12,472 nt of DNA, taken from positions 1 through 12,472 of the forward strand of contig JACPKR010000058.1 in assembly GCA_016186945.1 (NCBI GenBank), written 5' to 3'. The notes under the pieces are model-generated. The model was not told the DNA's origin. It worked only from the letters and a program-made list of their open reading frames with translations, and searched no databases. The position numbers and the translations under genes are program-made. Positions 2,073 to 12,472 of the stretch are shown piece by piece (the stretch's first letter is position 1; each line of letters opens with the position of its first letter). The DNA is from Deltaproteobacteria bacterium (GTDB lineage: Bacteria; Bdellovibrionota_B; Oligoflexia; Oligoflexales; Bog-1112).

Positions 2073-2124
2073 CGGAAGTGTAACAGGCTCATGAAAAAAG
2101 TCGCATCTAGGGAGAGGGGGGTTT

Positions 2125-2153
2125 GGGGGGGCGAGTGAAGCGTCGCCTCCCCC
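2125..2153. other. GC-rich hairpin next to repeat copy A
   Basis: GGGGGGGCGA (2125-2134) can pair with TCGCCTCCCCC (2143-2153) around an eight-base loop. It lies between the barrel gene and the lipoprotein gene, right beside the 43-bp repeat. No T-run follows on either strand, so it is not a classical terminator. Its CGTCGC-CCCCC part resembles the flank of the repeat copy at 12283, so it may be part of a longer element. Confidence 0.4.
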
Positions 2154-2161
2154 GGATTTCA

Positions 2162-2204
2162 TGGAGGAACCAGCTGCGCAGTTTCCTCCAAACCACCTCC
2201 TTGC
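2162..2204 (+). repeat. 43-bp palindromic post-stop repeat, copy A
   Basis: Arms GGAGGAA and TTCCTCC enclose a centre containing CTGCGCAG, followed by AAACCACCTCCTTGC. The core is identical to the copies at 4842 and 12283. It begins 9 bp after the stop codon of the minus-strand barrel gene (stop at 2214-2216) and lies in the opposite orientation to that gene. The flank GGATTT before the core and AAGTGGCTA after it are also seen, with variation, at other copies. The barrel gene's TAG stop is the reverse complement of the CTA in that flank. Confidence 0.9.
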
Positions 2205-2213
2205 TCCAAGTGG

Positions 2214-2966
2214 CTAAAAATAAAATGACGCGTTGGCCAGAAATTGTAGCACAGTGATGTTACCAAAGCCGACATGAATACGCGGCCCGATATGAAATAA
2301 GTCCCACGGCTTGAATCGCCCCTCCAGTCCTATTGAACCGATCCCACCGAACGGTTTCAGCGGCTTGGAATCCTCCTCAATAGGAATCTGGGAGTACAGG
2401 TGTGTGTTGACCAGCCCCGCTTCAAAGGAAGGTAGGAGATCGAAAATCTGGTGCAAATGAAACGCCGTCTCCAGTCCGAAGTTATACGTTTCCACAACCC
2501 CTCTGTACTCCTGGTACGCCGAACTTTCACTGATCGGGGCAACACTGAAGGGGAGATAGCGGAACGTGACGAAAACATCTTTCGTCATGACCGGCCTAGG
2601 CAATCTATAAGCAACTTTGAAATCGGCAAGACCGTTTGCACGTAGGTTCTTTTTGCTTTTGAAGGCTTTCGCCCAACCGAAGCTCGTACTTAAAACAAGC
2701 TTGGTTTTGAGATGTTCAGCCAATTTGGCCTTGAAGCCAGGCTCTGCTTCTTCAGCTTCCTCTATTTCAGTCTCCTGCCCGCCATCGTCCTTTTTTTTGG
2801 CCTTCTTTTTCTTCTTTTCGCTTTTTTCCTTCTTTTCAGGCTCCGGAGTGCCAGCCTCGGAAGGCGGTTGGGTTCCTGTGTCTTGCGCCCAAAGCGAGGC
2901 TTGGGCAGAGAGGAATAGAAAACATACCGTCATGACATGGTATTTGTGAAACATGAACGACCCCAT
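2214..2966 (-). CDS. probable small outer-membrane beta-barrel protein with charged linker
   Basis: This is a 250-residue protein. A hydrophobic signal peptide (about residues 6-27, cleavage likely after LWA) is followed by a low-complexity linker at 34-76, first Lys/Glu-rich with a run of lysines near 51-59, then acidic. From about residue 87 the chain alternates polar and hydrophobic residues, with frequent aromatics as in barrel strands, and it ends in ASFYF. A C-terminal phenylalanine is the usual BAM recognition signal of outer-membrane barrels. The length suits an eight-stranded barrel, but I do not recognise the family. The ATG at 2966 lies one base after the stop of the upstream gene and lacks a clear ribosome site, which suggests translational coupling. 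A second in-frame ATG (2954) would leave a tidier signal peptide. Repeat copy A begins 9 bp after its stop. Confidence 0.7.
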   Translation of the reverse strand: MGSFMFHKYHVMTVCFLFLSAQASLWAQDTGTQPPSEAGTPEPEKKEKSEKKKKKAKKKDDGGQETEIEEAEEAEPGFKAKLAEHLKTKLVLSTSFGWAKAFKSKKNLRANGLADFKVAYRLPRPVMTKDVFVTFRYLPFSVAPISESSAYQEYRGVVETYNFGLETAFHLHQIFDLLPSFEAGLVNTHLYSQIPIEEDSKPLKPFGGIGSIGLEGRFKPWDLFHIGPRIHVGFGNITVLQFLANASFYF

Positions 2967-2967
2967 G

Positions 2968-4089
2968 CTAAATCAATAGCTTTATTTCGAAAATGAAACG
3001 ACGTTCGGCTAACTTCTCGTGCAAACCCACCACGGGACCATGATCGACGGTGTAAGTGGCTAACCTAAGTTTGAGCAGTTCCACGTCGATCTGTAAACCG
3101 GCGGTCGGATAACCACTTTTTAGGCCAGCCTGGACCTTGATGATTCGCGAAAAACCCCATTCCATTCCCAAATTGAATTTTTGCGAATAATGGAGAGGCT
3201 GATTGATCGAATGAGAATCGAGGGCAAGCAGGAGATACGTGCGCTCGGTCTTTAGTGGCTTTAAACTGACCCCTGTATTGAAAGAAGGTTGGCGCAAGGG
3301 AGGAGCCTTGCGAGTTGAGATCGTCTGTTTATAAGCAGTCCCCCCCACGTCGGTGATACTTAGCCCCAGCGTGGGTTCCAAAGGTTCGATAGGTGTAAAA
3401 AGCAACCCCACATCAGCACCCACACCAACGCCCGATACCATCAACTGGTCAAGTTGCTTTTGGGAATCCTTTGCGCCTGTCGTGTCCGATCGGAAAAGAT
3501 CCAGATCATCAACATTAATGTCGTCCTGAATCCCAACAGCAGCGACAGGCTTCAGAGAAACCCCCCAACTGAGGCGATCTTCAAGAAGACTGTCAGCGTA
3601 GGAAATAGGCATCAATACATTGGCTAAAACCTCAGTCTCAAACACAACATAACTATGCGCGGTCAGAGAAAGAAAGTTCTTACTGCCTATCCCTACGCCC
3701 CAATGGGGGGCAACTACGTGAGGTGTAAACCCCAAAGCGAAATAATGAGGAAGACCCGACTGTTCCCTCATCAGATCGAGAATGTCGTCCAAACTTTTCT
3801 GCCCCTTCGTGTCTTTCACCAAATCTCGCGCTAGGGAGATCGTATTGTAAGACACCTCGACGCGAGGATTGATGATTTCAAACCTCATCTCTTTTAGACG
3901 CGCCAACCCCGCAGGGTTATAAAAAAGAGCATTAAAATCGTCCGCCACGGAAACAAAAGCATTCCCCATACCGAGTGGGCGGGTCCCAAAATGGGTCCAC
4001 TCTGCTGGTTGGGACCCTGCAACGCAGGGAAATGAAAATACCATTACATAAAAAAACACGCGAAGGAGGCAACGAGCACTAAAATCCAT
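2968..4089 (-). CDS. PorV/UPF0164/FadL-like outer-membrane barrel protein
   Basis: This 373-residue protein has a signal peptide at about residues 1-25. The segment at 35-63 (GTRPLGMGNAFVSVADD, then NALFYNPAGLA) is the hallmark N-terminal motif of the PorV/UPF0164/TraF-type branch of FadL-like outer-membrane barrels. The rest alternates polar and hydrophobic residues with Gly-rich turns (GVGIGSKN, GVGVGADVGLLF, LGLSITDVGG), as expected for strands. FadL itself takes up long-chain fatty acids, while PorV-type members serve secretion or surface anchoring, so the substrate here is open. The ATG at 4089 has a clear ribosome site (CGGAG, about seven bases upstream). It is the first gene of a three-gene minus-strand envelope cluster and is divergent from a TetR-family gene that is a natural candidate for its regulator. 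Confidence 0.78.
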   Translation of the reverse strand: MDFSARCLLRVFFYVMVFSFPCVAGSQPAEWTHFGTRPLGMGNAFVSVADDFNALFYNPAGLARLKEMRFEIINPRVEVSYNTISLARDLVKDTKGQKSLDDILDLMREQSGLPHYFALGFTPHVVAPHWGVGIGSKNFLSLTAHSYVVFETEVLANVLMPISYADSLLEDRLSWGVSLKPVAAVGIQDDINVDDLDLFRSDTTGAKDSQKQLDQLMVSGVGVGADVGLLFTPIEPLEPTLGLSITDVGGTAYKQTISTRKAPPLRQPSFNTGVSLKPLKTERTYLLLALDSHSINQPLHYSQKFNLGMEWGFSRIIKVQAGLKSGYPTAGLQIDVELLKLRLATYTVDHGPVVGLHEKLAERRFIFEIKLLI

Positions 4090-4137
4090 GAAAAACTCCG
4101 TTTGCTCTCGGCTGTATTATTAAGTAGATAGTTTCCC

Positions 4138-4158
4138 TTGTTTAGTATTGAATAACAA
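4138..4158. promoter_or_regulatory. operator-like inverted repeat in the tetR/barrel divergent region
   Basis: TTGTT (4138-4142) and AACAA (4154-4158) form a perfect 5-bp inverted repeat with a centre of 11 bases. This fits the size of many TetR-family operators. It overlaps the -35 part of the candidate tetR promoter, where an autorepressor would be expected to bind. The arms are short and AT-rich, so chance is a real alternative. Confidence 0.28.
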
Positions 4159-4175
4159 ATATTTTGCCCTATGAT
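4148..4175 (+). promoter_or_regulatory. candidate promoter of the TetR-family gene
   Basis: TTGAAT (4148-4153) and TATGAT (4170-4175) are 16 bases apart, matching four and five of six consensus positions. The -10 box ends 51 bases before the ATG at 4227, which would leave a leader of some 45 bases. Confidence 0.4.
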
Positions 4176-4226
4176 GGCGATAAAGTCGATACATAATCCC
4201 TTGGTTTTGAAATATGGGGGCCAGGA

Positions 4227-4829
4227 ATGCCAAGAACAGAAGTGGCCATTGAACGAAAGCACCAAATCGTTAAAGCGACAGTGGAGTGCGTTTCCAAATA
4301 CGGTTACAACAATTTTTCCATGCAAGATGTTGCCAGAACAGCAGGCGTTAGCAAAGGCATCATCCATTACTATTTTTTAAACAAAGATGACCTGATGATG
4401 TCTGTTTTGGAACATGTTGCCGGAGATATAGAGAGAATTTTACAAACCGGCACAAAGGATGTGAACGACCCTGTTAAGAAGCTCGAGATATTTGTCACAA
4501 CGTGCCTAAATATTGTGCGCGAGACCAAGGAATATTATCAAGTCAATATGGATTTCTGGACGCAAATCAACCAGAAGGAGGAGGTGCGGTTAACGATCTC
4601 CAAACACTACCGAAACTTTCGAGAGACATGTGCCAAAATTATCATTGAAGGCGTGGAACAGAACGTGTTTAAGAAAGTCGACGCAACGGAACTTGCCTCC
4701 GCAATTATCGCATTAGTCGATGGGATCAGCCTCCAATGGCTCTTCGATGAAACCGAGTTCAACTACGATAACGTTGTCAAACACATCAATGAAATGGTGA
4801 AAGCCTACCTGCAGAAACCTGTCCACTAG
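4227..4829 (+). CDS. TetR/AcrR-family transcriptional regulator
   Basis: This is a 200-residue protein with normal TetR-family length. The N-terminal DNA-binding domain spans about residues 10-55. Its helix-turn-helix is SMQDVARTAGVSKGIIHYYF (31-50), and the next segment, NKDDLMMSVLEHV, is the usual start of helix 4. The helical C-terminal ligand and dimer domain (about 60-198) resembles the BetI-like TetR_C group, though this is an impression from layout rather than an alignment. The start at 4227 follows GGGGG at 4216-4220. It is divergent from the PorV/FadL-like barrel gene with 137 bp between, the classic arrangement for a TetR protein controlling its neighbour. The inferred role is ligand-released repression of the envelope cluster and of itself. 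The ligand is unknown. Repeat copy B begins 12 bp after its stop. Confidence 0.9.
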   Translation: MPRTEVAIERKHQIVKATVECVSKYGYNNFSMQDVARTAGVSKGIIHYYFLNKDDLMMSVLEHVAGDIERILQTGTKDVNDPVKKLEIFVTTCLNIVRETKEYYQVNMDFWTQINQKEEVRLTISKHYRNFRETCAKIIIEGVEQNVFKKVDATELASAIIALVDGISLQWLFDETEFNYDNVVKHINEMVKAYLQKPVH

Positions 4830-4841
4830 AATTGTAATTCT

Positions 4842-4884
4842 TGGAGGAACCAGCTGCGCAGTTTCCTCCAAACCACCTCCTTGC
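4842..4884 (+). repeat. 43-bp palindromic post-stop repeat, copy B
   Basis: The core is identical to copies A and D. It begins 12 bp after the tetR stop, in the same orientation as the gene. The 5' flank keeps only ATTCT before TGGAGG. In the 3' flank a run of seven Cs is inserted before CCAAGTGGTTAG. The strand after the hairpin is pyrimidine-rich but lacks a T-tract. Confidence 0.9.
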
Positions 4885-5021
4885 TCCTTTGCCCCCCCAA
4901 GTGGTTAGTTTGCCACAGTCCCCATGAATAGCATGTTGTAAAAAAGACACAGCCAACTCTCCGAACTTACGAGCCAATCAGGAAAGACCTCCATTTCGGC
5001 ACATTAGGGGACGATTTTGTA

Positions 5022-5050
5022 TTGGCATACTGTTTGCTTGTTTATTATAA
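5022..5050 (+). promoter_or_regulatory. candidate sigma70-type promoter of the lpxC operon
   Basis: TTGGCA (5022-5027) is followed after 17 bases by TTATAA (5045-5050), or after 18 by TATAAG (5046-5051). The -35 matches five of six. It lies 57 bases before the lpxC ATG, in the only non-coding gap upstream of the lpxC-comEC-receiver operon. The rest of the 4885-5021 gap shows nothing else I can name. Confidence 0.5.
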
Positions 5051-5107
5051 GCAGGGCCTGCCTAAGGTCGATACATCGACTACGAGACACTTCCAGAAAG
5101 GAAATTC

Positions 5108-6007
5108 ATGAAACGACTGCAAGGAACGGTGACGCGCGAGATTCAATTCGCCGGAGTGGGTTTGCATAGCGGCCGTCTTGTCAATTTAACGATCTTGCCC
5201 CTTGGACCCAATTCAGGGATTTATTTCGAAAGGACCGACACGGATGCGGAACCCGTTCTTGCAAGCCCTTTCAGTGTGACATCTACGATGCTTTGCACAA
5301 CCATCGGGGAGGCCCCTCATTCTATTTCAACAATCGAGCACCTCATGGCAGCCTTTTTCGGTCTAGGAATCGACAACGCCCTCGTGAGGGTAAGCGCAAG
5401 TGAGGTGCCCATCCTAGACGGGAGTGCAGCGCCTTTCGTGGACAAACTGGTTGAGGCCGGCCTTCAGATTCAACACGTTGCGAAGAAGATCATTGCTTTT
5501 CCCGAACCCTTTGTCATTTCCGAGGGTGAGCAATACATAAAATACGAGCCCCTCGACGATCCTTCCGCTTTGGAAATAGAATGTTCGATTGAATTTCCTC
5601 ACTCGGTTATCCGGGCGCAGTCCTTTCAAATGCGTTTTAGCCGCGAGGAATTTATGAGAATCTGTGAGGCAAGGACCTTTTGCCATATAGACAGCGTGAA
5701 AACTATGAGAGCGCAAGGCTTGGCCCTAGGTGGTTCACTAGATAACGCCGTTGTTGTCGACGACAACCGAGTGTTAAACGCAGACGGCTTGCGCTACGAA
5801 GATGAGTTTGTCAGACATAAGCTTCTCGACTTCCTGGGCGACGTCCACCTTCTGCCAGGTGTCCTAGCGGGAAAAGTCACACTTCACAAAGCCGGTCATC
5901 GTTTACATGCGCAATTCACAAGGCACATTCTCTCCCAAGTGAAAATTTCCGTAGCGGAACGATCCCGCAACCCGCATTCCTTTATGCTGCAATCAGCTGT
6001 CGGATGA
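5108..6007 (+). CDS. lpxC: UDP-3-O-acyl-N-acetylglucosamine deacetylase LpxC
   Basis: LpxC is the zinc-dependent deacetylase for the first committed step of lipid A synthesis. It removes acetate from UDP-3-O-acyl-GlcNAc in the cytoplasm. This protein has 299 residues, against about 305 in E. coli, and all key motifs are present. STIEHLMAA holds the general base Glu77 and zinc ligand His78, RHKLLDFLGD holds zinc ligands His237 and Asp241 plus the conserved Asp245, and KAGH holds catalytic His264. ARTFCH (188-193) and ALGGSLDNAVVVDD (206-219) are further family signatures. The ATG follows AAAGGA at 5097-5102. The TGA overlaps the ATG of the comEC-like gene (ATGA), so lpxC heads a translationally coupled operon. 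It is the firmest evidence that the organism is Gram-negative with lipid A. In E. coli LpxC is degraded by FtsH through a C-terminal tail. The tail here (HSFMLQSAVG) ends hydrophobic, so a similar control is possible but unproven. Confidence 0.98.
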   Translation: MKRLQGTVTREIQFAGVGLHSGRLVNLTILPLGPNSGIYFERTDTDAEPVLASPFSVTSTMLCTTIGEAPHSISTIEHLMAAFFGLGIDNALVRVSASEVPILDGSAAPFVDKLVEAGLQIQHVAKKIIAFPEPFVISEGEQYIKYEPLDDPSALEIECSIEFPHSVIRAQSFQMRFSREEFMRICEARTFCHIDSVKTMRAQGLALGGSLDNAVVVDDNRVLNADGLRYEDEFVRHKLLDFLGDVHLLPGVLAGKVTLHKAGHRLHAQFTRHILSQVKISVAERSRNPHSFMLQSAVG

Positions 6008-7449
6008 TGCGTCGAGGGGATTTATTGGAGGAACCAGCTGCGCAGTGTCCTCCAAACCCCCTCCTTGCCCTAAGCGGTACGTTCCGTGGCCTGCAGATAG
6101 TGAGTATCGGTTTTTTCCTTGGCACCTTGGCGGGATGGGCGAGTGACGCTCTTGTCATGCAAGGATATTACCTGGCTGGTCTGTCATTCGCCTTGTGGGG
6201 CCTGAGTCACTGCTTTTACAAACGCTTCTCCCTATTCTTTCTCGCTTGCACAGGAGTCTTCTGGGCCTGGGCGCACAGTGCTGTTTCTCCCCCATACCCC
6301 GTGGAAAATGTTGAAATCACCAGGAGCAACGTCCTCCCTTCACGAACAAACCTAATCGTGAGACATGGTGAGCGTTTCTATCGAGTGAAAGGCGTGGGGA
6401 CTGAATCCACTCATGGCGATGTCAGGGTCGTACCTTTCCAGCAAATTTTTGGATCTGTTAGTGCCAGCTTTACACCATACGAGCCAGGTCATTCCAGTGG
6501 GCTAGCTAAACTTTCCCAATATGTCGGAAACTTTCTGGATAAGTGCCTTGTAAGGTCGTCTCCGAAACTTCAGGCTCTCGTTGCAGCAATCATTTTGGGC
6601 CAAAAAGATGGCCTCGATTCATCCCTGACCAAAGATTTTAGGCATCTGGGAATTTTTCACCTGCTCGTGGTAAGTGGGCTACATATCAGTTTCCTGAGTT
6701 GGCTTTTTCTTGTTTGCATCTTGGCTCCTTTCCAGTGTCTTTATGCGTTTTGTCTGCTCAGTCCCAGAAGGTGGTACTTCCTTCAGTCCCTCTTACGGCT
6801 TATCTCGGTCGCTGTCGTTTTCATTTATGGCTTGGGGATAGGCTTCCCCCCTGCTGCTCAGCGTGCGATTCTTCTTTTCAGCTGTGCTCAGGGGGCGAAG
6901 GTCTTCTCGCTACCCATCGACTTCCGTGGAAAAGTGCTTTTCACCCTTGTAGCACAGCAGTTTTTCTTTCCTCTCGATGTGGTTTCCGTGGCTTCCCTCT
7001 TAAGTTGGACGGCTTATGTTACGGTCGTTTCTCTTGCCGCAGGCGGAGAGGGATTGAGGAGAAGTTTGGAAGTCCAGGCTTGCCTGACTCTTCTCGCGGG
7101 AGGGGTCTTGGGGAGTCTAAGTTTTGCGGGTTTTTTTCTAAACCTGCTCATCGTTCCGCTTTTCCCTCTTGTTGTTTTCGGTGCTGTCTTGCAAATGGTG
7201 CCGAGTGATATTGTACAGACTGCCTCGGGACGTCTTCTCTCTGCTTTCATCATATTAGTGGAAACGTGTTCGGAGTGGTTTGGGAATGTTTCCTGGTCAT
7301 ATTTGGACCTTAGCCACTCACCCCTGGCTCGATGGAGTGTTTTGGGGGCTGGTTTTCTTTTCTTCCTAAATATTTTCAAACGCCTGCCGATACCTTTTCA
7401 AGGTGAGTGTCGGGTAGAGGAAATTTATGAAGAATCAAAGCCAAGCTGA
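6004..7449 (+). CDS. comEC: ComEC/Rec2-family inner-membrane protein, short form
   Basis: ComEC forms the inner-membrane channel for single-stranded DNA in natural transformation. This protein has 481 residues, against roughly 750 in well-known members. Two or more membrane segments lie at about 30-90, then a soluble stretch (100-165), then the competence domain from 185 on, with GQKDGLDSSL (199-208) and the diagnostic LVVSGLHISFL (221-231). Several further hydrophobic helices follow, with PPAAQRAIL at 282-290. It ends near residue 481 without the metallo-beta-lactamase-like domain found at the C-terminus of full ComEC, and the receiver gene follows at once, so no remnant is hidden. The ATG overlaps the lpxC stop and has no clear ribosome site, so coupling is likely. 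Residues 8-22 are encoded by repeat copy C. A GTG at 6100 or ATG at 6157 are alternative starts that would avoid it. A working DNA channel is inferred, not shown. Confidence 0.85.
   Translation: MMRRGDLLEEPAAQCPPNPLLALSGTFRGLQIVSIGFFLGTLAGWASDALVMQGYYLAGLSFALWGLSHCFYKRFSLFFLACTGVFWAWAHSAVSPPYPVENVEITRSNVLPSRTNLIVRHGERFYRVKGVGTESTHGDVRVVPFQQIFGSVSASFTPYEPGHSSGLAKLSQYVGNFLDKCLVRSSPKLQALVAAIILGQKDGLDSSLTKDFRHLGIFHLLVVSGLHISFLSWLFLVCILAPFQCLYAFCLLSPRRWYFLQSLLRLISVAVVFIYGLGIGFPPAAQRAILLFSCAQGAKVFSLPIDFRGKVLFTLVAQQFFFPLDVVSVASLLSWTAYVTVVSLAAGGEGLRRSLEVQACLTLLAGGVLGSLSFAGFFLNLLIVPLFPLVVFGAVLQMVPSDIVQTASGRLLSAFIILVETCSEWFGNVSWSYLDLSHSPLARWSVLGAGFLFFLNIFKRLPIPFQGECRVEEIYEESKPS
6026..6068 (+). repeat. 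43-bp palindromic post-stop repeat, copy C (inside the comEC frame)
   Basis: The core matches the consensus except T to G at 6047 and A to C at 6059. It begins 18 bp after the lpxC stop, in gene orientation, and is preceded by GCGTCGAGGGGATTT, which resembles the flanks of copies A and D. Within the comEC frame it encodes LEEPAAQCPPNPLLA. The unaltered core would also read open in this frame, with Phe and His in place of Cys15 and Pro19. Confidence 0.88.
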
Positions 7450-7825
7450 AACCGATGGTTGGAAAGGAAAAAGTGTTCTCGTCGTTGAAGATTCGAAATT
7501 AATGCAGGAACAAATCGTCGCCATTTTTGAAAGTATAGGCATGAAAGTCGTGGGAACCTGTGAAGATGGGGTCGCAGCCCTTGCTAAAGTGAAGGAATTG
7601 AACCCAGACTTGGTGAGTCTGGATATCATCCTTCCTGACATGAACGGAATCGAATGTTACCGCGAGCTGAAAAAAACAAACGCCAAGGTCCGTTGTATTT
7701 TTGCAAGTGTCCTTGGTGCTCACATCAGTGAGAATTTCCGAGAGGACATTCCCGCTCACCTTTTTATGAATAAGCCATTCTTGCCCGATCAGCTGAGAGA
7801 AAGTTTGAAAAAAGTATTCAGTTAA
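7427..7825 (+). CDS. CheY-like stand-alone receiver (response regulator) protein
   Basis: This is a 132-residue single-domain receiver. The KSVLVVEDS strand carries the acidic pair Glu21-Asp22 that binds magnesium. Asp66 in LVSLDIILPDMNG is the phosphoacceptor, Ser94 takes the place of the conserved Thr/Ser switch residue, and Lys116 in NKPF is the conserved lysine. There is no output domain, so it must act by protein contact, as CheY or Spo0F do. The motif VVEDSKLMQEQI followed by SLDIILPDMNG is typical of CheY-type proteins. The ATG at 7427 follows GAGG (7417-7420) and overlaps the comEC end by 23 bp, making it the third gene of the lpxC operon. The partner kinase is not in the window. Its stop overlaps the convergent zinc-ribbon gene's stop by four bases. 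Confidence 0.93.
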   Translation: MKNQSQAETDGWKGKSVLVVEDSKLMQEQIVAIFESIGMKVVGTCEDGVAALAKVKELNPDLVSLDIILPDMNGIECYRELKKTNAKVRCIFASVLGAHISENFREDIPAHLFMNKPFLPDQLRESLKKVFS

Positions 7826-8967
7826 ACTTTCTCGATATGCTCTTCCTGCTCTTTTCTTTCATAGAAGAAGCTTGAAGTCTCGTTTTCCTTGGAACCGCGT
7901 CTGATCGTGGCAATATAGGCGCTCGCGCCCGCAATCAGAAGGAAAAAGAAGGCAACAAGGAGGAAAGCGGGGTGCCAAATGGATCCGAGAAAAAAGAGGA
8001 TTAAGGCAGCAGCCGAGCACAAGGCAGCGTTGATCCAGATCTTGTCTCTCTGGATAATAGCCAACTCACTTTTCAGAACACCTCCCGTGTATCCTTCGAT
8101 GATGATATTTTTTTTGTCAGTCTTTTGAAAATGTCTCAAGGCACTGGAGGGTCGGTAAAGGTATCGAATGTGCCAAAACGGTAGGTGAATGAGCTGAAGC
8201 CCAGCGATGTCAAGTTCCGTGCGGATGTCCACGGGAATATCGACGTTAAGTTTAGCGATCTTAAAGTGGTAAAGTTCGACGTGCAATCTCGCCCTTCTCA
8301 GCGCTTCTTCCTCGTCAATTTCTACTGATAAAATAGGCAGCCCGTTACTGAACTTGAAATCGAAATACTCCCGCACACCGTAAGCAGGAAGTTCACCTTC
8401 CAAACTTTCCTTAGATGTCTTAACCCCCGTTGTCGGGTCGATCCGGCCACGGGAAAAGGTTGAGTCAAGGGGAAAGCCATCCCATTCGATGTTGATTGCT
8501 TCCTTTGGTTCGTGCAGTTCAGTCAGGCCCCAGTGTTCGCAAATGTTTTTCCGAGACGAAACCGCCCAGCGATAACTTCGGCGAAAGACCCCACTCTCCG
8601 TGACATAGCCCGTTGTGAGCATTTCAGCGGCAGACTTTTGCCTTTTTACAAGGCCTTTCCAGGATGTATGGGCCTCAAGCGACACGATCCAGAAAGGGAT
8701 AGAATAGCCCTTGGCGTCAGTTATGAAGTATTCCCTTTCTACCGTCCCGGGTTTGTGGTGTATGCGTTTGATCCACTGTAGAACCAGATTTCGCACCTGG
8801 CCGGAATCGATCGCGTTGGGGATGATAAAATGCTCCGCAAATATTTCCTTACGCCCCGACTCCAGGTCAAACGAAAACGTCGCCGAGCAGGTCGGGCACA
8901 TTAGCAGGTAACTATTCAGGTCATATTGCGCTGACGCACTGCAACTCGGGCAGGTAAGTTCATGCAT
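7822..8967 (-). CDS. zinc-ribbon membrane protein of unknown function
   Basis: This is a 381-residue protein that I do not recognise. The N-terminus is a zinc ribbon with CPSC (Cys6, Cys9) and CPTC (Cys24, Cys27). The middle is soluble and beta-rich and contains two similar motifs, SIPFWIVSLEAHTSW (about 88-102) and LIHLPFWHIRYLYR (about 258-271), suggesting a duplicated fold. Two hydrophobic helices follow at about 311-330 and 333-352, then a short charged tail. It is probably anchored in the inner membrane with the ribbon in the cytoplasm. The ATG at 8967 is preferred: AAAGGGGG lies five bases upstream. The in-frame GTG one codon earlier (8970) is an alternative and would add one residue. 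It is convergent with the receiver gene (stops overlap by four bases) and divergent from dnaK. No neighbour hints at its role. Confidence 0.75.
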   Translation of the reverse strand: MHELTCPSCSASAQYDLNSYLLMCPTCSATFSFDLESGRKEIFAEHFIIPNAIDSGQVRNLVLQWIKRIHHKPGTVEREYFITDAKGYSIPFWIVSLEAHTSWKGLVKRQKSAAEMLTTGYVTESGVFRRSYRWAVSSRKNICEHWGLTELHEPKEAINIEWDGFPLDSTFSRGRIDPTTGVKTSKESLEGELPAYGVREYFDFKFSNGLPILSVEIDEEEALRRARLHVELYHFKIAKLNVDIPVDIRTELDIAGLQLIHLPFWHIRYLYRPSSALRHFQKTDKKNIIIEGYTGGVLKSELAIIQRDKIWINAALCSAAALILFFLGSIWHPAFLLVAFFFLLIAGASAYIATIRRGSKENETSSFFYERKEQEEHIEKV

Positions 8968-8994
8968 CACGGCCCCCTTTGGGTGTTTTCTTAG

Positions 8995-9003
8995 ATTTTA
9001 ACA
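8995..9003 (-). promoter_or_regulatory. candidate extended -10 promoter of the zinc-ribbon gene
   Basis: On the minus strand TGTTAAAAT (9003-8995) fits an extended -10 element (TGnTATAAT with one mismatch), 27 bases before the ATG at 8967. No convincing -35 box lies upstream, which extended -10 promoters can do without. Confidence 0.35.
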
Positions 9004-9011
9004 TGAAGAAC

Positions 9012-9039
9012 TTGACATAAGGGGCTGTGGTCTTAAGTT
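9012..9039 (+). promoter_or_regulatory. candidate promoter of dnaK
   Basis: A perfect TTGACA -35 (9012-9017) is followed after 16 bases by TAAGTT (9034-9039), a poor -10. No CIRCE inverted repeat and no sigma32-type CCCCAT box is visible in the 8968-9138 gap, so classical heat-shock control is not evident. The leader to the ATG would be about 90 bases. Confidence 0.3.
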
Positions 9040-9088
9040 TCGCTAAGAACGACCTGCTCACAGCAGCATTCCACAGATAATAGAGAAG

Positions 9089-9111
9089 CAGGTTTCCTGT
9101 CAAATAACCTG
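9089..9111 (+). other. hairpin in the dnaK leader
   Basis: CAGGTT (9089-9094) and AACCTG (9106-9111) form a perfect 6-bp stem with an 11-base loop, ending 16 bases before the ribosome site GGAG (9128-9131). A smaller hairpin, CTGCT-CAC-AGCAG, lies at 9054-9066. The stem does not cover the ribosome site, so it is not an obvious RNA thermometer. Confidence 0.3.
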
Positions 9112-9138
9112 GAATGATTACAAAATTGGAGTTTTAAA

Positions 9139-11037
9139 ATGGGAAAAGTTATAGGGATTGACTTGGGTACAACCAACTCTGTTGTGTCCGTTATGGAACA
9201 TGGGAAACCCAAGATCATAGAAAACGCTGAAGGCCAGCGAACCACCCCAAGTGTTGTTGCCTATACGAAAGAAGGAGAAATCCTAGTCGGCGGGGCTGCA
9301 CGTCGCCAGGCTGTCATCAACCCGATGAACACTATTTACTCAGCAAAACGATTTATCGGCTGCTTGTTTAAAGAACGAATGGATGAGTCCAAGCGAGTTC
9401 CCTACAAAGTGAAAGAAGGCAAAGGCGGAGGCTGCATATTTGAAATTTTGGGCAAAGATTTTAACCCTTCGGAAATCTCAGCAAAAGTGCTTTCCAAACT
9501 TAAACTCGCTGCGGAAGATTATCTAGGCGAGAAAGTAACAGAAGCTGTTATTACCGTCCCCGCATACTTTAATGACGACCAAAGGCAGGCTACCAAAGAC
9601 GCCGGCAAGATTGCAGGGCTGGACGTCAAACGGATAGTGGCAGAGCCAACAGCAGCCGCCCTTGCGTACGGAATGGACAAAAAGAAGAACGAAAAAATCA
9701 TCGTATTCGACTTCGGTGGTGGGACCTTCGACGTCTCCCTTCTCGAAGTAGGGGACAATGTGGTCGAAGTGCTTGCCACAAATGGGGACACTCACCTGGG
9801 TGGGGACAATATTGATGAAATCCTCATCTCCTATCTGATCACACAGTTCAAAAAAGACACAGGCATTGATGTTTCCAAAGACCCTATGGCGGTTCAGCGT
9901 TTGAAAGAGGCTGCGGAAAAAGCGAAGATCGAACTTTCCTCAGCGCAATCTACGGAAATCAACTTACCATTCCTTACAGCGGATCAGACGGGGCCTAAAC
10001 ACCTTGTTGTCACCTTAAGACGTTCCGAGTTTGAAAAACTCATTCATGACCTTGTCGCAAAAACCCTGGGACCATGCGAGAAAGTCCTAAAAGATGGAAA
10101 GATCAGCAAAGATGGTATTGAGGAAGTGATCCTCGTCGGGGGGTCTACCCGCATACCTCTGGTACAAGCGAGAGTACGGGAATTCTTCGGCAAGGAACCT
10201 AACAGGTCTGTCAATCCAGACGAGGTTGTATCTTACGGTGCAGCGATTCAGGCGGGTATCCTGGCAGGAGATGTAAAAGACGTCCTCCTTCTCGATGTGA
10301 CCCCACTCTCCCTGGGTATAGAAACCCAAGGGGGCGTCATGACAAAGTTGATTGAGCGCAACACCACGATCCCTACTCGCAAAAGCCAGATCTTCTCCAC
10401 CGCAGCCGACAACCAAACCTCGGTCGAAATCGTTGTTCTGCAAGGTGAACGTGAGATGGCGCCGGACAACAGAAGCCTTGGTCGCTTTAGTCTGGTGGAT
10501 ATTCCACCCGCCCCTAGAGGCGTACCACAGATCGAAGTAACCTTCGACATCGACGCCAACGGTATCGTGTCCGTCTATGCTAAAGATATGGGCACCAGCA
10601 AAGAGCAAAAAATTGTGATCACATCGCAGGCTAAACTTGACGAAAATGAAATCAAGAAGATGGTGCGCGATAGCGAAGAGCACAAGGAAGAAGACAAGAA
10701 GCGTCGAGAAATGGTGGAAGCGCACAATAGCCTCGACTCGCTGATCTACCAGGCTGAGAAACTTCTGCGAGACAATGCGGACAAAGTTCCTGCCGACCTG
10801 AAAGGAGAATTGGAGTCTGCCGTCAGTACAGCAAAATCCAAACTTAGCAGCCAGGATTTGGAAACCTTGAAAGTTGCAAGAACCGAGTTTGAAGCGAAAC
10901 TGCACAAACTCACAGAAACTATCTACAAACACGCTGGTCATGGGCCAGGCGGAGCAGGCCCCTCTGGCGGAAACGACAAGAAAAAAGATGACGATGTCGT
11001 AGACGCTGAGTATGAGGAAGGCGATAATAAAAAGTAG
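9139..11037 (+). CDS. dnaK: molecular chaperone DnaK (Hsp70)
   Basis: DnaK binds exposed hydrophobic peptide segments in an ATP cycle driven by DnaJ and GrpE in the cytoplasm. At 632 residues it is full length. The ATPase domain has [10 protein letters not shown] (5-14), [17 protein letters not shown] (140-156), [11 protein letters not shown] (168-178), [11 protein letters not shown] (190-200) and [10 protein letters not shown] (333-342). The interdomain linker is [15 protein letters not shown] (381-395), the substrate-binding domain follows to about 500, the helical lid to about 600, and then a Gly-rich and acidic tail. The tail has [11 protein letters not shown] (617-627), the usual bacterial DnaK end, but runs on through GDNKK. 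The ATG follows GGAG at 9128-9131. Neither grpE nor dnaJ is adjacent. Instead the stop abuts the ATG of a DUF1704 metallopeptidase gene. If the genome has other DnaK paralogues, this could be a secondary copy, but the sequence looks canonical. Confidence 0.98.
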
Positions 11038-12270
11038 ATGAATTGGGACCATGTTAAAGAGATCAACGACAAACTGATCCCCATCGCCAAAGGTATCAAA
11101 ATACTTTCGTCGATTTCGTGGCCCCTTTCTGCAGAATACGAGTTTATATCTTCCTTGGAAGAAGGGAGGGTTAAACTCCCCACAATCACCTACCCAAAAC
11201 GAGATTTTAACCCTGAAATTAAAGCACTGGACGGCCTTCTTAAGCATTGGACGGCCGTTCATCCTGTAGAAGTCTTTCTGAAAAAGACGATAGAAAGTTA
11301 TCGAGATGCGGCCCGCATGTTGCAGGCGGTGGGAACTCAGCAGTTTACTAAGCTTTCCATCGAAATTTTCGGTACGTCTTCAGATATCATCTCACAGAAG
11401 AAGATTAGCAACCTCCAGGTTGCCAAACGTTTCCTGAGGCACGAGAGGCGATTTGACCATCCCTATCTCAAGGAGACTGAAAGCACGGTTTCGGCAGAAA
11501 CGATTGCCGAGTTCTTACGCAATCAGATTGCAGCGCTCTTTCAGGACGTCGGCCCAAAAGTGGAAATCTCCTCATCCCTCGCCGCAAAAGCGACTGCCAA
11601 CGCGCAAGTCATCCGTTTGCGAGAAGGGACTTCCTACAATACTTATGATGGCCAGCAACTTCTTGTGCATGAAGTGTTAACGCACAGTCTCACTGCTCTC
11701 AACGGTCAGAGGCAGAAATTTCTTAGCATCCTCGGATTCAGTGCGCCTCGTACTGTTAAAACCCAGGAAGGGCTGGCAACTTACTCCGAGGTCATAACCG
11801 GCTCCATCGACTTGCGGCGCTTGCAACGAATCGCGTTGAGGATTATCGCGATCGAAAATGCCCTCAATGGTGCGAGCTTTGTCGATACCTTTCGCTTCTT
11901 TCTTGAAAACGGTCAGAGTCCGAAGGAAAGCTTCTGGTCGGCAGCCAGGATTTTCAGAGGAGGTTTTCCCAACAAGAACATTGTCTTTACGAAAGATATC
12001 GTCTACCTGGATGGACTTATGAAGGTACACGCCTTGTTCCGCTGGGTCTTTATGAACCAACGCCTGGACTTGCTCCACCTTCTTTTCTGTGGACGGCTGA
12101 CGATCGAAGATCTCTTCCCACTTGAGGAATCCTACAAAACGGGAATCATAGACCCGCCGAAGTTTTTACCGGGCTGGTACACCAATATCTACGGTTTAGC
12201 AGGTTCCCTAAGTTTTCTGGAAGTCTCTCATGAAATTGATAAGCTTCATCTGGAACAGGAATTCATGTAG
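11038..12270 (+). CDS. DUF1704/MATCAP-like zinc metallopeptidase (QEGLA-motif protein)
   Basis: This 410-residue protein belongs to the family annotated DUF1704 (PF08014), also called 'flavohemoglobin expression-modulating QEGLA motif protein'. The name motif is present as TQEGLATYSE (242-251). HEVLTH (211-216) is a gluzincin-type HExxxH zinc site, and Glu244 of QEGLA is the likely third zinc ligand. The conserved TKDIVYLDGL is at 318-327. The eukaryotic members MATCAP1/2 (KIAA0895L/KIAA0895) are carboxypeptidases that remove the C-terminal tyrosine of alpha-tubulin. The substrate of bacterial members is not known to me. There is no signal peptide, so the protein is cytoplasmic. The ATG directly follows the dnaK stop (TAGATG), so it is co-transcribed and probably translationally coupled with the chaperone. 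Repeat copy D begins 12 bp after its stop, and the TAG stop may itself be the edge of the repeat element. Confidence 0.88.
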   Translation: MNWDHVKEINDKLIPIAKGIKILSSISWPLSAEYEFISSLEEGRVKLPTITYPKRDFNPEIKALDGLLKHWTAVHPVEVFLKKTIESYRDAARMLQAVGTQQFTKLSIEIFGTSSDIISQKKISNLQVAKRFLRHERRFDHPYLKETESTVSAETIAEFLRNQIAALFQDVGPKVEISSSLAAKATANAQVIRLREGTSYNTYDGQQLLVHEVLTHSLTALNGQRQKFLSILGFSAPRTVKTQEGLATYSEVITGSIDLRRLQRIALRIIAIENALNGASFVDTFRFFLENGQSPKESFWSAARIFRGGFPNKNIVFTKDIVYLDGLMKVHALFRWVFMNQRLDLLHLLFCGRLTIEDLFPLEESYKTGIIDPPKFLPGWYTNIYGLAGSLSFLEVSHEIDKLHLEQEFM

Positions 12271-12282
12271 CGCTTGTGGCAA

Positions 12283-12325
12283 GCAAGGAGGTGGTTTGGA
12301 GGAAACTGCGCAGCTGGTTCCTCCA
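12283..12325 (-). repeat. 43-bp palindromic post-stop repeat, copy D (inverted)
   Basis: The core is identical to copies A and B but on the minus strand, beginning 12 bp after the stop of the DUF1704 gene. In the gene's mRNA it reads GCAAGGAGGTGG followed by the hairpin. The flanks resemble copy A: TAGCGCTTG next to the gene stop, and AAATCC plus a CCCCTTGGGGG palindrome (12332-12342) on the far side. It would also be the 3' region of the possible minus-strand gene ending at 12439. Confidence 0.9.
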
Positions 12326-12438
12326 AGAAATCCCCTTGGGGGAGCGACGGTTCCCTGTTATGTGAATATCCCACAAGCAAAGAAACGTCCTCCTTCGATT
12401 TTTTTCTTCAAAGAGATAAGATCCGCAACAACAACCTG

Positions 12439-12472
12439 TTATTCGGGGTCGAAGTCTAGCTTCGCCTCAAGC
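12439..12472 (-). CDS. possible C-terminal end of a minus-strand gene entering from the right (partial)
   Basis: Only one minus-strand frame is open at the right edge. It reads LEAKLDFDPE and then TAA at 12441-12439. The other two minus frames carry stops within the first few codons. Ten codons cannot identify a family. If real, the gene is convergent with the dnaK operon, and repeat copy D sits between the two gene ends. Confidence 0.3.
   Translation of the reverse strand, partial: LEAKLDFDPE

What the first reader, a model, noticed from the sequence alone, without database searches (positions are those of the whole stretch)
2162..12325. A 43-bp palindromic repeat follows every free gene end in the window
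Four copies of one element (2162-2204, 4842-4884, 6026-6068, and 12283-12325 inverted) occur in 12.5 kb. Three are identical and one has two substitutions. Each begins 9, 12, 18 or 12 bp after a stop codon. Among complete genes, the ends without a copy are those abutted or overlapped by another annotated gene (573/576, 2968, 7449, 7822/7825, 11037). Both orientations relative to the gene occur. Identity this high in non-coding DNA next to unrelated genes argues for recent spread or strong constraint. The hairpin arms GGAGGAA/TTCCTCC around CTGCGCAG suggest a REP/REPIN-like element, a terminator or a 3'-end stabiliser. I do not recognise it as a named family.
Basis: partly seen in the sequence, partly recalled or inferred. 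Interest (0 to 1): 0.85.

Follow-up and report, generated by a model that had tools for sequence, protein, structure and literature searches.

The report
Mobile palindromic repeat supplying stop codons
The palindrome is one of about 400 copies of a small structured DNA repeat, in this genome carried mostly by a miniature jumping element that lands between genes; it seems to follow stop codons partly because the tip of the jumping element itself contains a stop codon, so it is a new family of a familiar kind of genomic parasite with an unusual, possibly triple-stranded fold.

Summary
The genome (2.66 Mb, 91% complete) holds 395 copies of the core. In 412 kb of sampled sequence the copies are intergenic but fit the lengths of tandem, convergent and divergent gaps (40/11/18 against about 36/9/24 expected). 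18 lie in divergent gaps, which contain no gene 3' end, and only 59 of 167 free gene ends carry a copy.

56 of 78 copies carry parts of a ~145-bp miniature inverted-repeat transposable element (MITE) with termini GTAATGCGTAAGCCACTTGGGGCAA. 17 of 37 full-length elements have 8-9 bp target duplications (0.5 expected). The terminal GTAA supplies TAA: of 23 genes running into an element, 13 end on a stop codon inside it. This is the likely reason copies seem to "follow stop codons".

The 43-bp unit is older than the MITE and occurs in two other genera of the family. Its hairpin is supported by base-pair covariation and keeps A·A and C·T mismatches. Its 3' tail co-varies with the 5' arm in mirror order, the signature of an intrastrand triplex. 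No terminator, no RAYT association, no Rfam family. Verdict: a new REP/MITE-like family, possibly triplex-forming.

The parts
2109..2214 (+). truncated MITE remnant (internal GC hairpin, unit, worn right TIR ...CCAAGTGGC)
   Evidence: alignment by eye with full-length copies listed; the right TIR reaches the stop codon of gene 2214-2966 (TAGCCACTTGGAGC on the minus strand)
2162..2204 (+). 43-bp unit, copy 1: hairpin plus mirror tail
4821..4907 (+). worn element around copy 2; GTCCACTAG resembles the GTCCACTCG arm variant and holds the TAG of the TetR-like gene (4227-4829)
   Evidence: sequence comparison with C12:18090; inference
4842..4884 (+). 43-bp unit, copy 2
6003..6077 (+). worn element around copy 3; GATGATGCGTC resembles the TIR end and holds the TGA of the lpxC-like gene (5108-6007)
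   Evidence: sequence comparison; inference
6026..6068 (+). 43-bp unit, copy 3 (two substitutions)
12258..12358 (-). MITE remnant around copy 4: TIR GTAGCGCTTGTGGCAAG holding the TAG of gene 11038-12270, unit, part of the GC hairpin
   Evidence: TIR match and stop 13 nt inside it
12283..12325 (-). 43-bp unit, copy 4 (reverse orientation)

Best explanation
The 43-bp palindrome is the structured module of a lineage-specific non-autonomous mobile repeat. Here most copies sit inside, or are remnants of, a ~145-bp MITE with 25-bp inverted ends beginning GTAA, inserted with 8(-9)-bp target duplications. It is moved in trans by a DDE-type transposase not found in the assembly; IS66-like is the best guess. 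Insertions survive between genes because insertions within genes are removed. When one lands at the 3' end of a gene, the GTAA tip (TAA in two of three frames) becomes the gene's stop codon, so the palindrome appears a fixed short distance after stop codons. The module itself is older than the MITE. It folds as a mismatched hairpin with a pyrimidine tail that mirrors the stem, so one strand could form a purine-motif intrastrand triplex. Shown: copy number, TIRs, target duplications, stop codons inside ends, hairpin covariation, mirror co-variation. Inferred: transposase type, triplex formation, selection against genic insertions.
For: 395 copies; 221 TIR sites in this genome and none in the relatives searched; full-length 143-148 bp elements; 17 of 37 with target duplications against a shuffled mean of 0.5 and maximum of 4; 56 of 78 copies with MITE parts; an element inserted in the loop of another unit copy (L204:740-908); 13 of 23 genes entering an element end inside it, 8 exactly at GTAA; context matches intergenic space; single-strand DNA fold of one full element has z -10.3; hairpin covariation 0.549 against 0.134 shuffled.
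Against: 22 of 78 copies show no MITE part at the cut-offs used, and the units in G005/G007 lack this TIR (G005), so a second spreading route for the unit alone is possible. No transposase with matching ends was found; IS66 is absent from the held 91% of the genome.
Confidence: 0.82

Rival explanations
1. The unit is a REP/REPIN spread as single-stranded hairpins by a Y1 (RAYT/IS200-like) transposase; the MITE merely captured it.
For: Conserved mismatched hairpin with a conserved one-sided flank; inverted pairs 195-485 bp apart in G007 look like REPINs; 22 of 78 copies lack MITE parts; G005 holds several Y1 proteins of RAYT length.
Against: No GTAG or CGTC tag; own genome has only IS200/IS605-type Y1 fragments; of the 11 fetched Y1 loci of G005 only one has a unit within a few kb, and the Y1 locus of G007 has none.
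Confidence: 0.2
2. A transcript-level 3' signal (terminator or mRNA 3'-end stabiliser) held by selection at gene ends.
For: In tandem gaps 27 of 40 are nearer the stop and 26 of 40 are on the gene strand; hairpin pairs covary.
Against: 18 of 69 copies in divergent gaps; most free gene ends lack a copy; no T-run after the hairpin on either strand; no Rfam match; absent from the same-genus genome G001 (75% complete) and most of the family.
Confidence: 0.05
3. The unit is kept and shaped mainly as an intrastrand DNA triplex that stalls replication or promotes rearrangement; mobility is secondary.
For: Mirror co-variation of arm and tail (G-run length equals C-run length in 57 of 79; A3 with T2, A2 with T1; 0 of 5000 within-genome permutations); all 60 distinct own units meet the published type-1 stem rule against 12.8 with shuffled tails.
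Confidence: 0.25

Closest known systems
MITEs with 8-bp target duplications and GTAA ends (IS66-type ends)
   Same: TIR starts GTAA; 8(-9) bp duplication; no coding capacity; high copy number. IS66 elements in relatives show GTAAGCG ends, one of them with an 8-bp duplication
   Different: GTAATGCG rather than GTAAGCG; no IS66 transposase in the held genome; carries a separate older hairpin module
REP / REPIN elements (Bertels & Rainey 2011, PMC3116915; GTAG/CGTC REPs, PMC3733652)
   Same: short, intergenic, high-copy imperfect palindromes, single or in inverted pairs
   Different: no GTAG or CGTC tag, no linked RAYT found, TIR plus target duplications, no significant bias away from divergent gaps
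Intrastrand triplex repeats, TM-ECO (Holder et al. 2015, PMC4666352)
   Same: purine arm, its complement and a mirror third strand within one strand; GGC/AAT/TAT triads of class I; intergenic repeat
   Different: second loop of 13-15 nt instead of 1-6 with its own conserved structure; third strand co-varies across stem classes; linked to a MITE

Membership tests
MITE | terminal inverted repeats and length under a few hundred bp | tested here: met
   25-bp TIRs, mostly 143-148 bp
MITE | target site duplications | tested here: met
   17 of 37 against 0.5 expected
MITE | autonomous parent transposase with the same ends | tested here: inconclusive
   IS66 absent from held genome; only about 100 of 221 TIR places were listed and the one long pair was two ordinary MITEs
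REP (GTAG/CGTC superfamilies) | unpaired GTAG or CGTC tag beside the stem | tested here: not met
   flank is CTCCTTGC / GCAAGGAG
REPIN/RAYT | RAYT gene flanked by the repeat | tested here: not met
   Y1 loci of G005 and G007 inspected, units not flanking; own Y1 genes are IS200/IS605-type fragments; L054 holds a MITE beside a Y1 fragment at a contig end
REPIN | inverted doublets as the replicating unit | tested here: inconclusive
   present in G007; in own genome mostly single units in MITEs plus a few 40-bp inverted doublets
Intrastrand triplex motif (class I) | stem >=6 with GGC/AAT/TAT triads, <=1 mismatch | tested here: met
   60/60 own, 23/34 G005, 6/47 G007; tail-shuffled 12.8, 7.8, 1.6
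Intrastrand triplex motif (class I) | both loops 1-6 nt (published search rule, PMC4666352) | tested here: not met
   0 units pass with second loop <=6
Intrastrand triplex motif | forms a triplex in solution | not testable with these tools
   needs CD, NMR or chemical probing
Intrinsic terminator | GC hairpin followed by a T-run | tested here: not met
   hairpin followed by AAACC or AAGAAAT; no terminator-like hit on any of the four units, one weak hit in the remnant at 12331-12343

The most novel reading that the evidence does not exclude
The unit is a natural intrastrand triplex under selection: three strands co-vary across genera (hairpin arm, its complement and a mirror third strand), giving comparative evidence for a triple-stranded DNA structure that a mobile-element family uses or exploits.
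Probability: 0.3. Interest if true: 0.8.

Novelty: new variant of a known kind. Interest (0 to 1): 0.55.

Why it matters
It replaces a supposed gene-end signal with a simple mechanism: a mobile element whose ends carry stop codons will look like a 3'-end element. The same caution applies to other repeats described as sitting downstream of genes. The arm/tail mirror co-variation offers a rare comparative test for triplex DNA in bacteria, where evidence has rested on sequence matching, in vitro work and footprinting.

Tried and rejected
Rfam scan of the window: no match. Naming the organism through the ComEC-like protein failed. The whole genome was not available as a file, so contexts were computed on twenty 20-kb stretches plus the window. 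Integron attC sites were considered and dropped (no R/L boxes recognised, random orientation; from memory, not tested). RAYT association was looked for and not found. A 2.2-kb pair of TIRs looked like an autonomous element but was two ordinary MITEs flanking genes. Antiparallel (Watson-Crick) pairing of tail to arm was tested as a control: it fits worse (G-C 194 of 289 against 271 of 289 in parallel).

Full report
OBSERVATION. The core GGAGGAACCAGCTGCGCAGTTTCCTCC has 395 matches at <=3 mismatches in the 2.66-Mb assembly and none for the reversed control. In 412 kb of sampled sequence 62 of the copies are exact.

GENE CONTEXT. With genes called on the sample (364 genes, 90% coding), 69 copies could be placed between two genes: 40 tandem, 11 convergent, 18 divergent. 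Intergenic length predicts 36, 8.6 and 24 (p 0.26; 0.14 after removing element length). Only 2 of 82 lie deep inside predicted genes. Only 59 of 167 gene 3' ends with a gap of >=40 nt have a copy in that gap, compared with 69 of 223 gene 5' ends. The rule "every free gene end" is therefore a small-window impression.

WHAT CARRIES IT. Around most copies the similarity extends to GTAATGCGTAAGCCACTTGGGGCAA - GC hairpin - unit - TTGCCCCAAGTGGCTTACGCATTAC, mostly 143-148 bp. Of 37 distinct full-length elements 11 have exact 8-bp and 4 exact 9-bp duplications; 17 pass a one-mismatch rule against 0.5 expected by shuffling. 56 of 78 copies carry at least one MITE part. The TIR is absent from the other genomes searched, including the same-genus one.

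WHY STOP CODONS ARE NEAR. The TIR reads GTAATGCGTAAGCC: a TAA ends 4 nt or 11 nt inside the element in two frames, and the third frame is open through the element. Of 23 called genes that run into a TIR, 13 end inside the element, 8 of them exactly on the GTAA; several more end within 2 nt outside it. In the window the stop of copy 4 lies 13 nt inside a recognisable TIR. By eye the stops at copies 1-3 lie in worn TIR-like sequence (TAGCCACTTGGAGC; GTCCACTAG; GATGATGCGTC); this is inference.

THE UNIT IS OLDER THAN THE MITE. The loop pattern AACCANCTGCGNAGNTT occurs 70 times in G005 and 100 times in G007 (other genera, same family) and hardly elsewhere; a covariance model agrees (at least 130, 108 and 133 hits in G007, G005 and own genome; none in 53 others). 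In G007 it forms inverted pairs 195-485 bp apart.

STRUCTURE. On 36 distinct hairpins 98% of cells pair, and the covariation score is 0.549 against 0.134 in shuffles and at most 0.135 when slid. The N-N' pair takes all four Watson-Crick forms. The A.A mismatch is kept in 86 of 87 distinct sequences, the C.T mismatch in 75, the TGC loop in 85. The 3' tail mirrors the arm: GGGAGAAA with CCCTCTT, GGGGAA with CCCCT, GGGAAA with CCCTT, AGAGAAA with TCTCTT. G-run equals C-run length in 57 of 79 distinct units, and A-run 3 or 2 goes with T-run 2 or 1 in 74 of 79; 0 of 5000 within-genome permutations reach either correlation. The dominant own class has CCACC where strict mirroring asks CCTCC; on the other strand this is T opposite A, a triad that the published type-1 rule allows (AAT, GGC, TAT). 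All 60 distinct own units with a tail pass that stem rule if the second loop may be up to 16 nt, and none with the published 1-6 nt limit. I know of no copying mechanism that makes mirror repeats, so a structural constraint is the simplest reading (inference). Co-variation counts sequences, not independent events, and there are only about eight stem classes.

MECHANISM AND LIMITS. I take the family to be non-autonomous mobile DNA. The transposase is unknown: IS66 is absent from the held genome, though GTAA ends with an 8-bp duplication occur on an IS66 element of a relative. Own Y1 transposases are IS200/IS605-type fragments. A terminator role is unlikely: no T-run follows the hairpin and the pattern scan puts none on the units. 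The organism could not be named with the tools at hand.

Noticed in passing
L075-L082 (G007): 250-480 bp composite elements bounded by inverted units contain inner long hairpins whose stems differ between modules (e.g. CGATCGG against CAGACAG) while internal loops (AAAATCGCAG, GTGACCCGTTGGGCCCC) stay fixed.
   Followed up: no
window 12340-12472; start of L053: A sequence TGTGAATATCCCACAAGCAAAGAAACGTCCTCC... beside copy 4 recurs elsewhere in the genome, twice in tandem at the start of L053; another repeat family.
   Followed up: no
L031-L049 (C6:25647, C12:21862, C16:17270, C17:39628): Inverted doublets 40 bp apart made of two different hairpin classes (AGGGAAA with T-A loop pair and GGAGGAA with G-C loop pair).
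   Followed up: partly
L204:726-1643: A methyltransferase-like ORF ends in ~50 residues encoded by the MITE read through its open frame; the element adds protein tails.
   Followed up: partly
L204:740-908: A full MITE sits inside the loop of another unit copy (nested insertion).
   Followed up: yes
window 6004-6077: Copy 3 lies in frame in the first codons of the ComEC-like ORF, giving LEEPAAQCPPNPLLALSG if the start at 6004 is used.
   Followed up: no
L204:4723-4799 and G000:C16:56669-56745: 77-bp elements made only of the two TIRs, without the unit.
   Followed up: no
C12:64229, C14:64343, C16:24729: MITEs with an extra palindrome AGCCTGCCCTGAGCAAAGCGAAGGGT in the loop of the GC hairpin, a second dispersed repeat nested in the first.
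   Followed up: no
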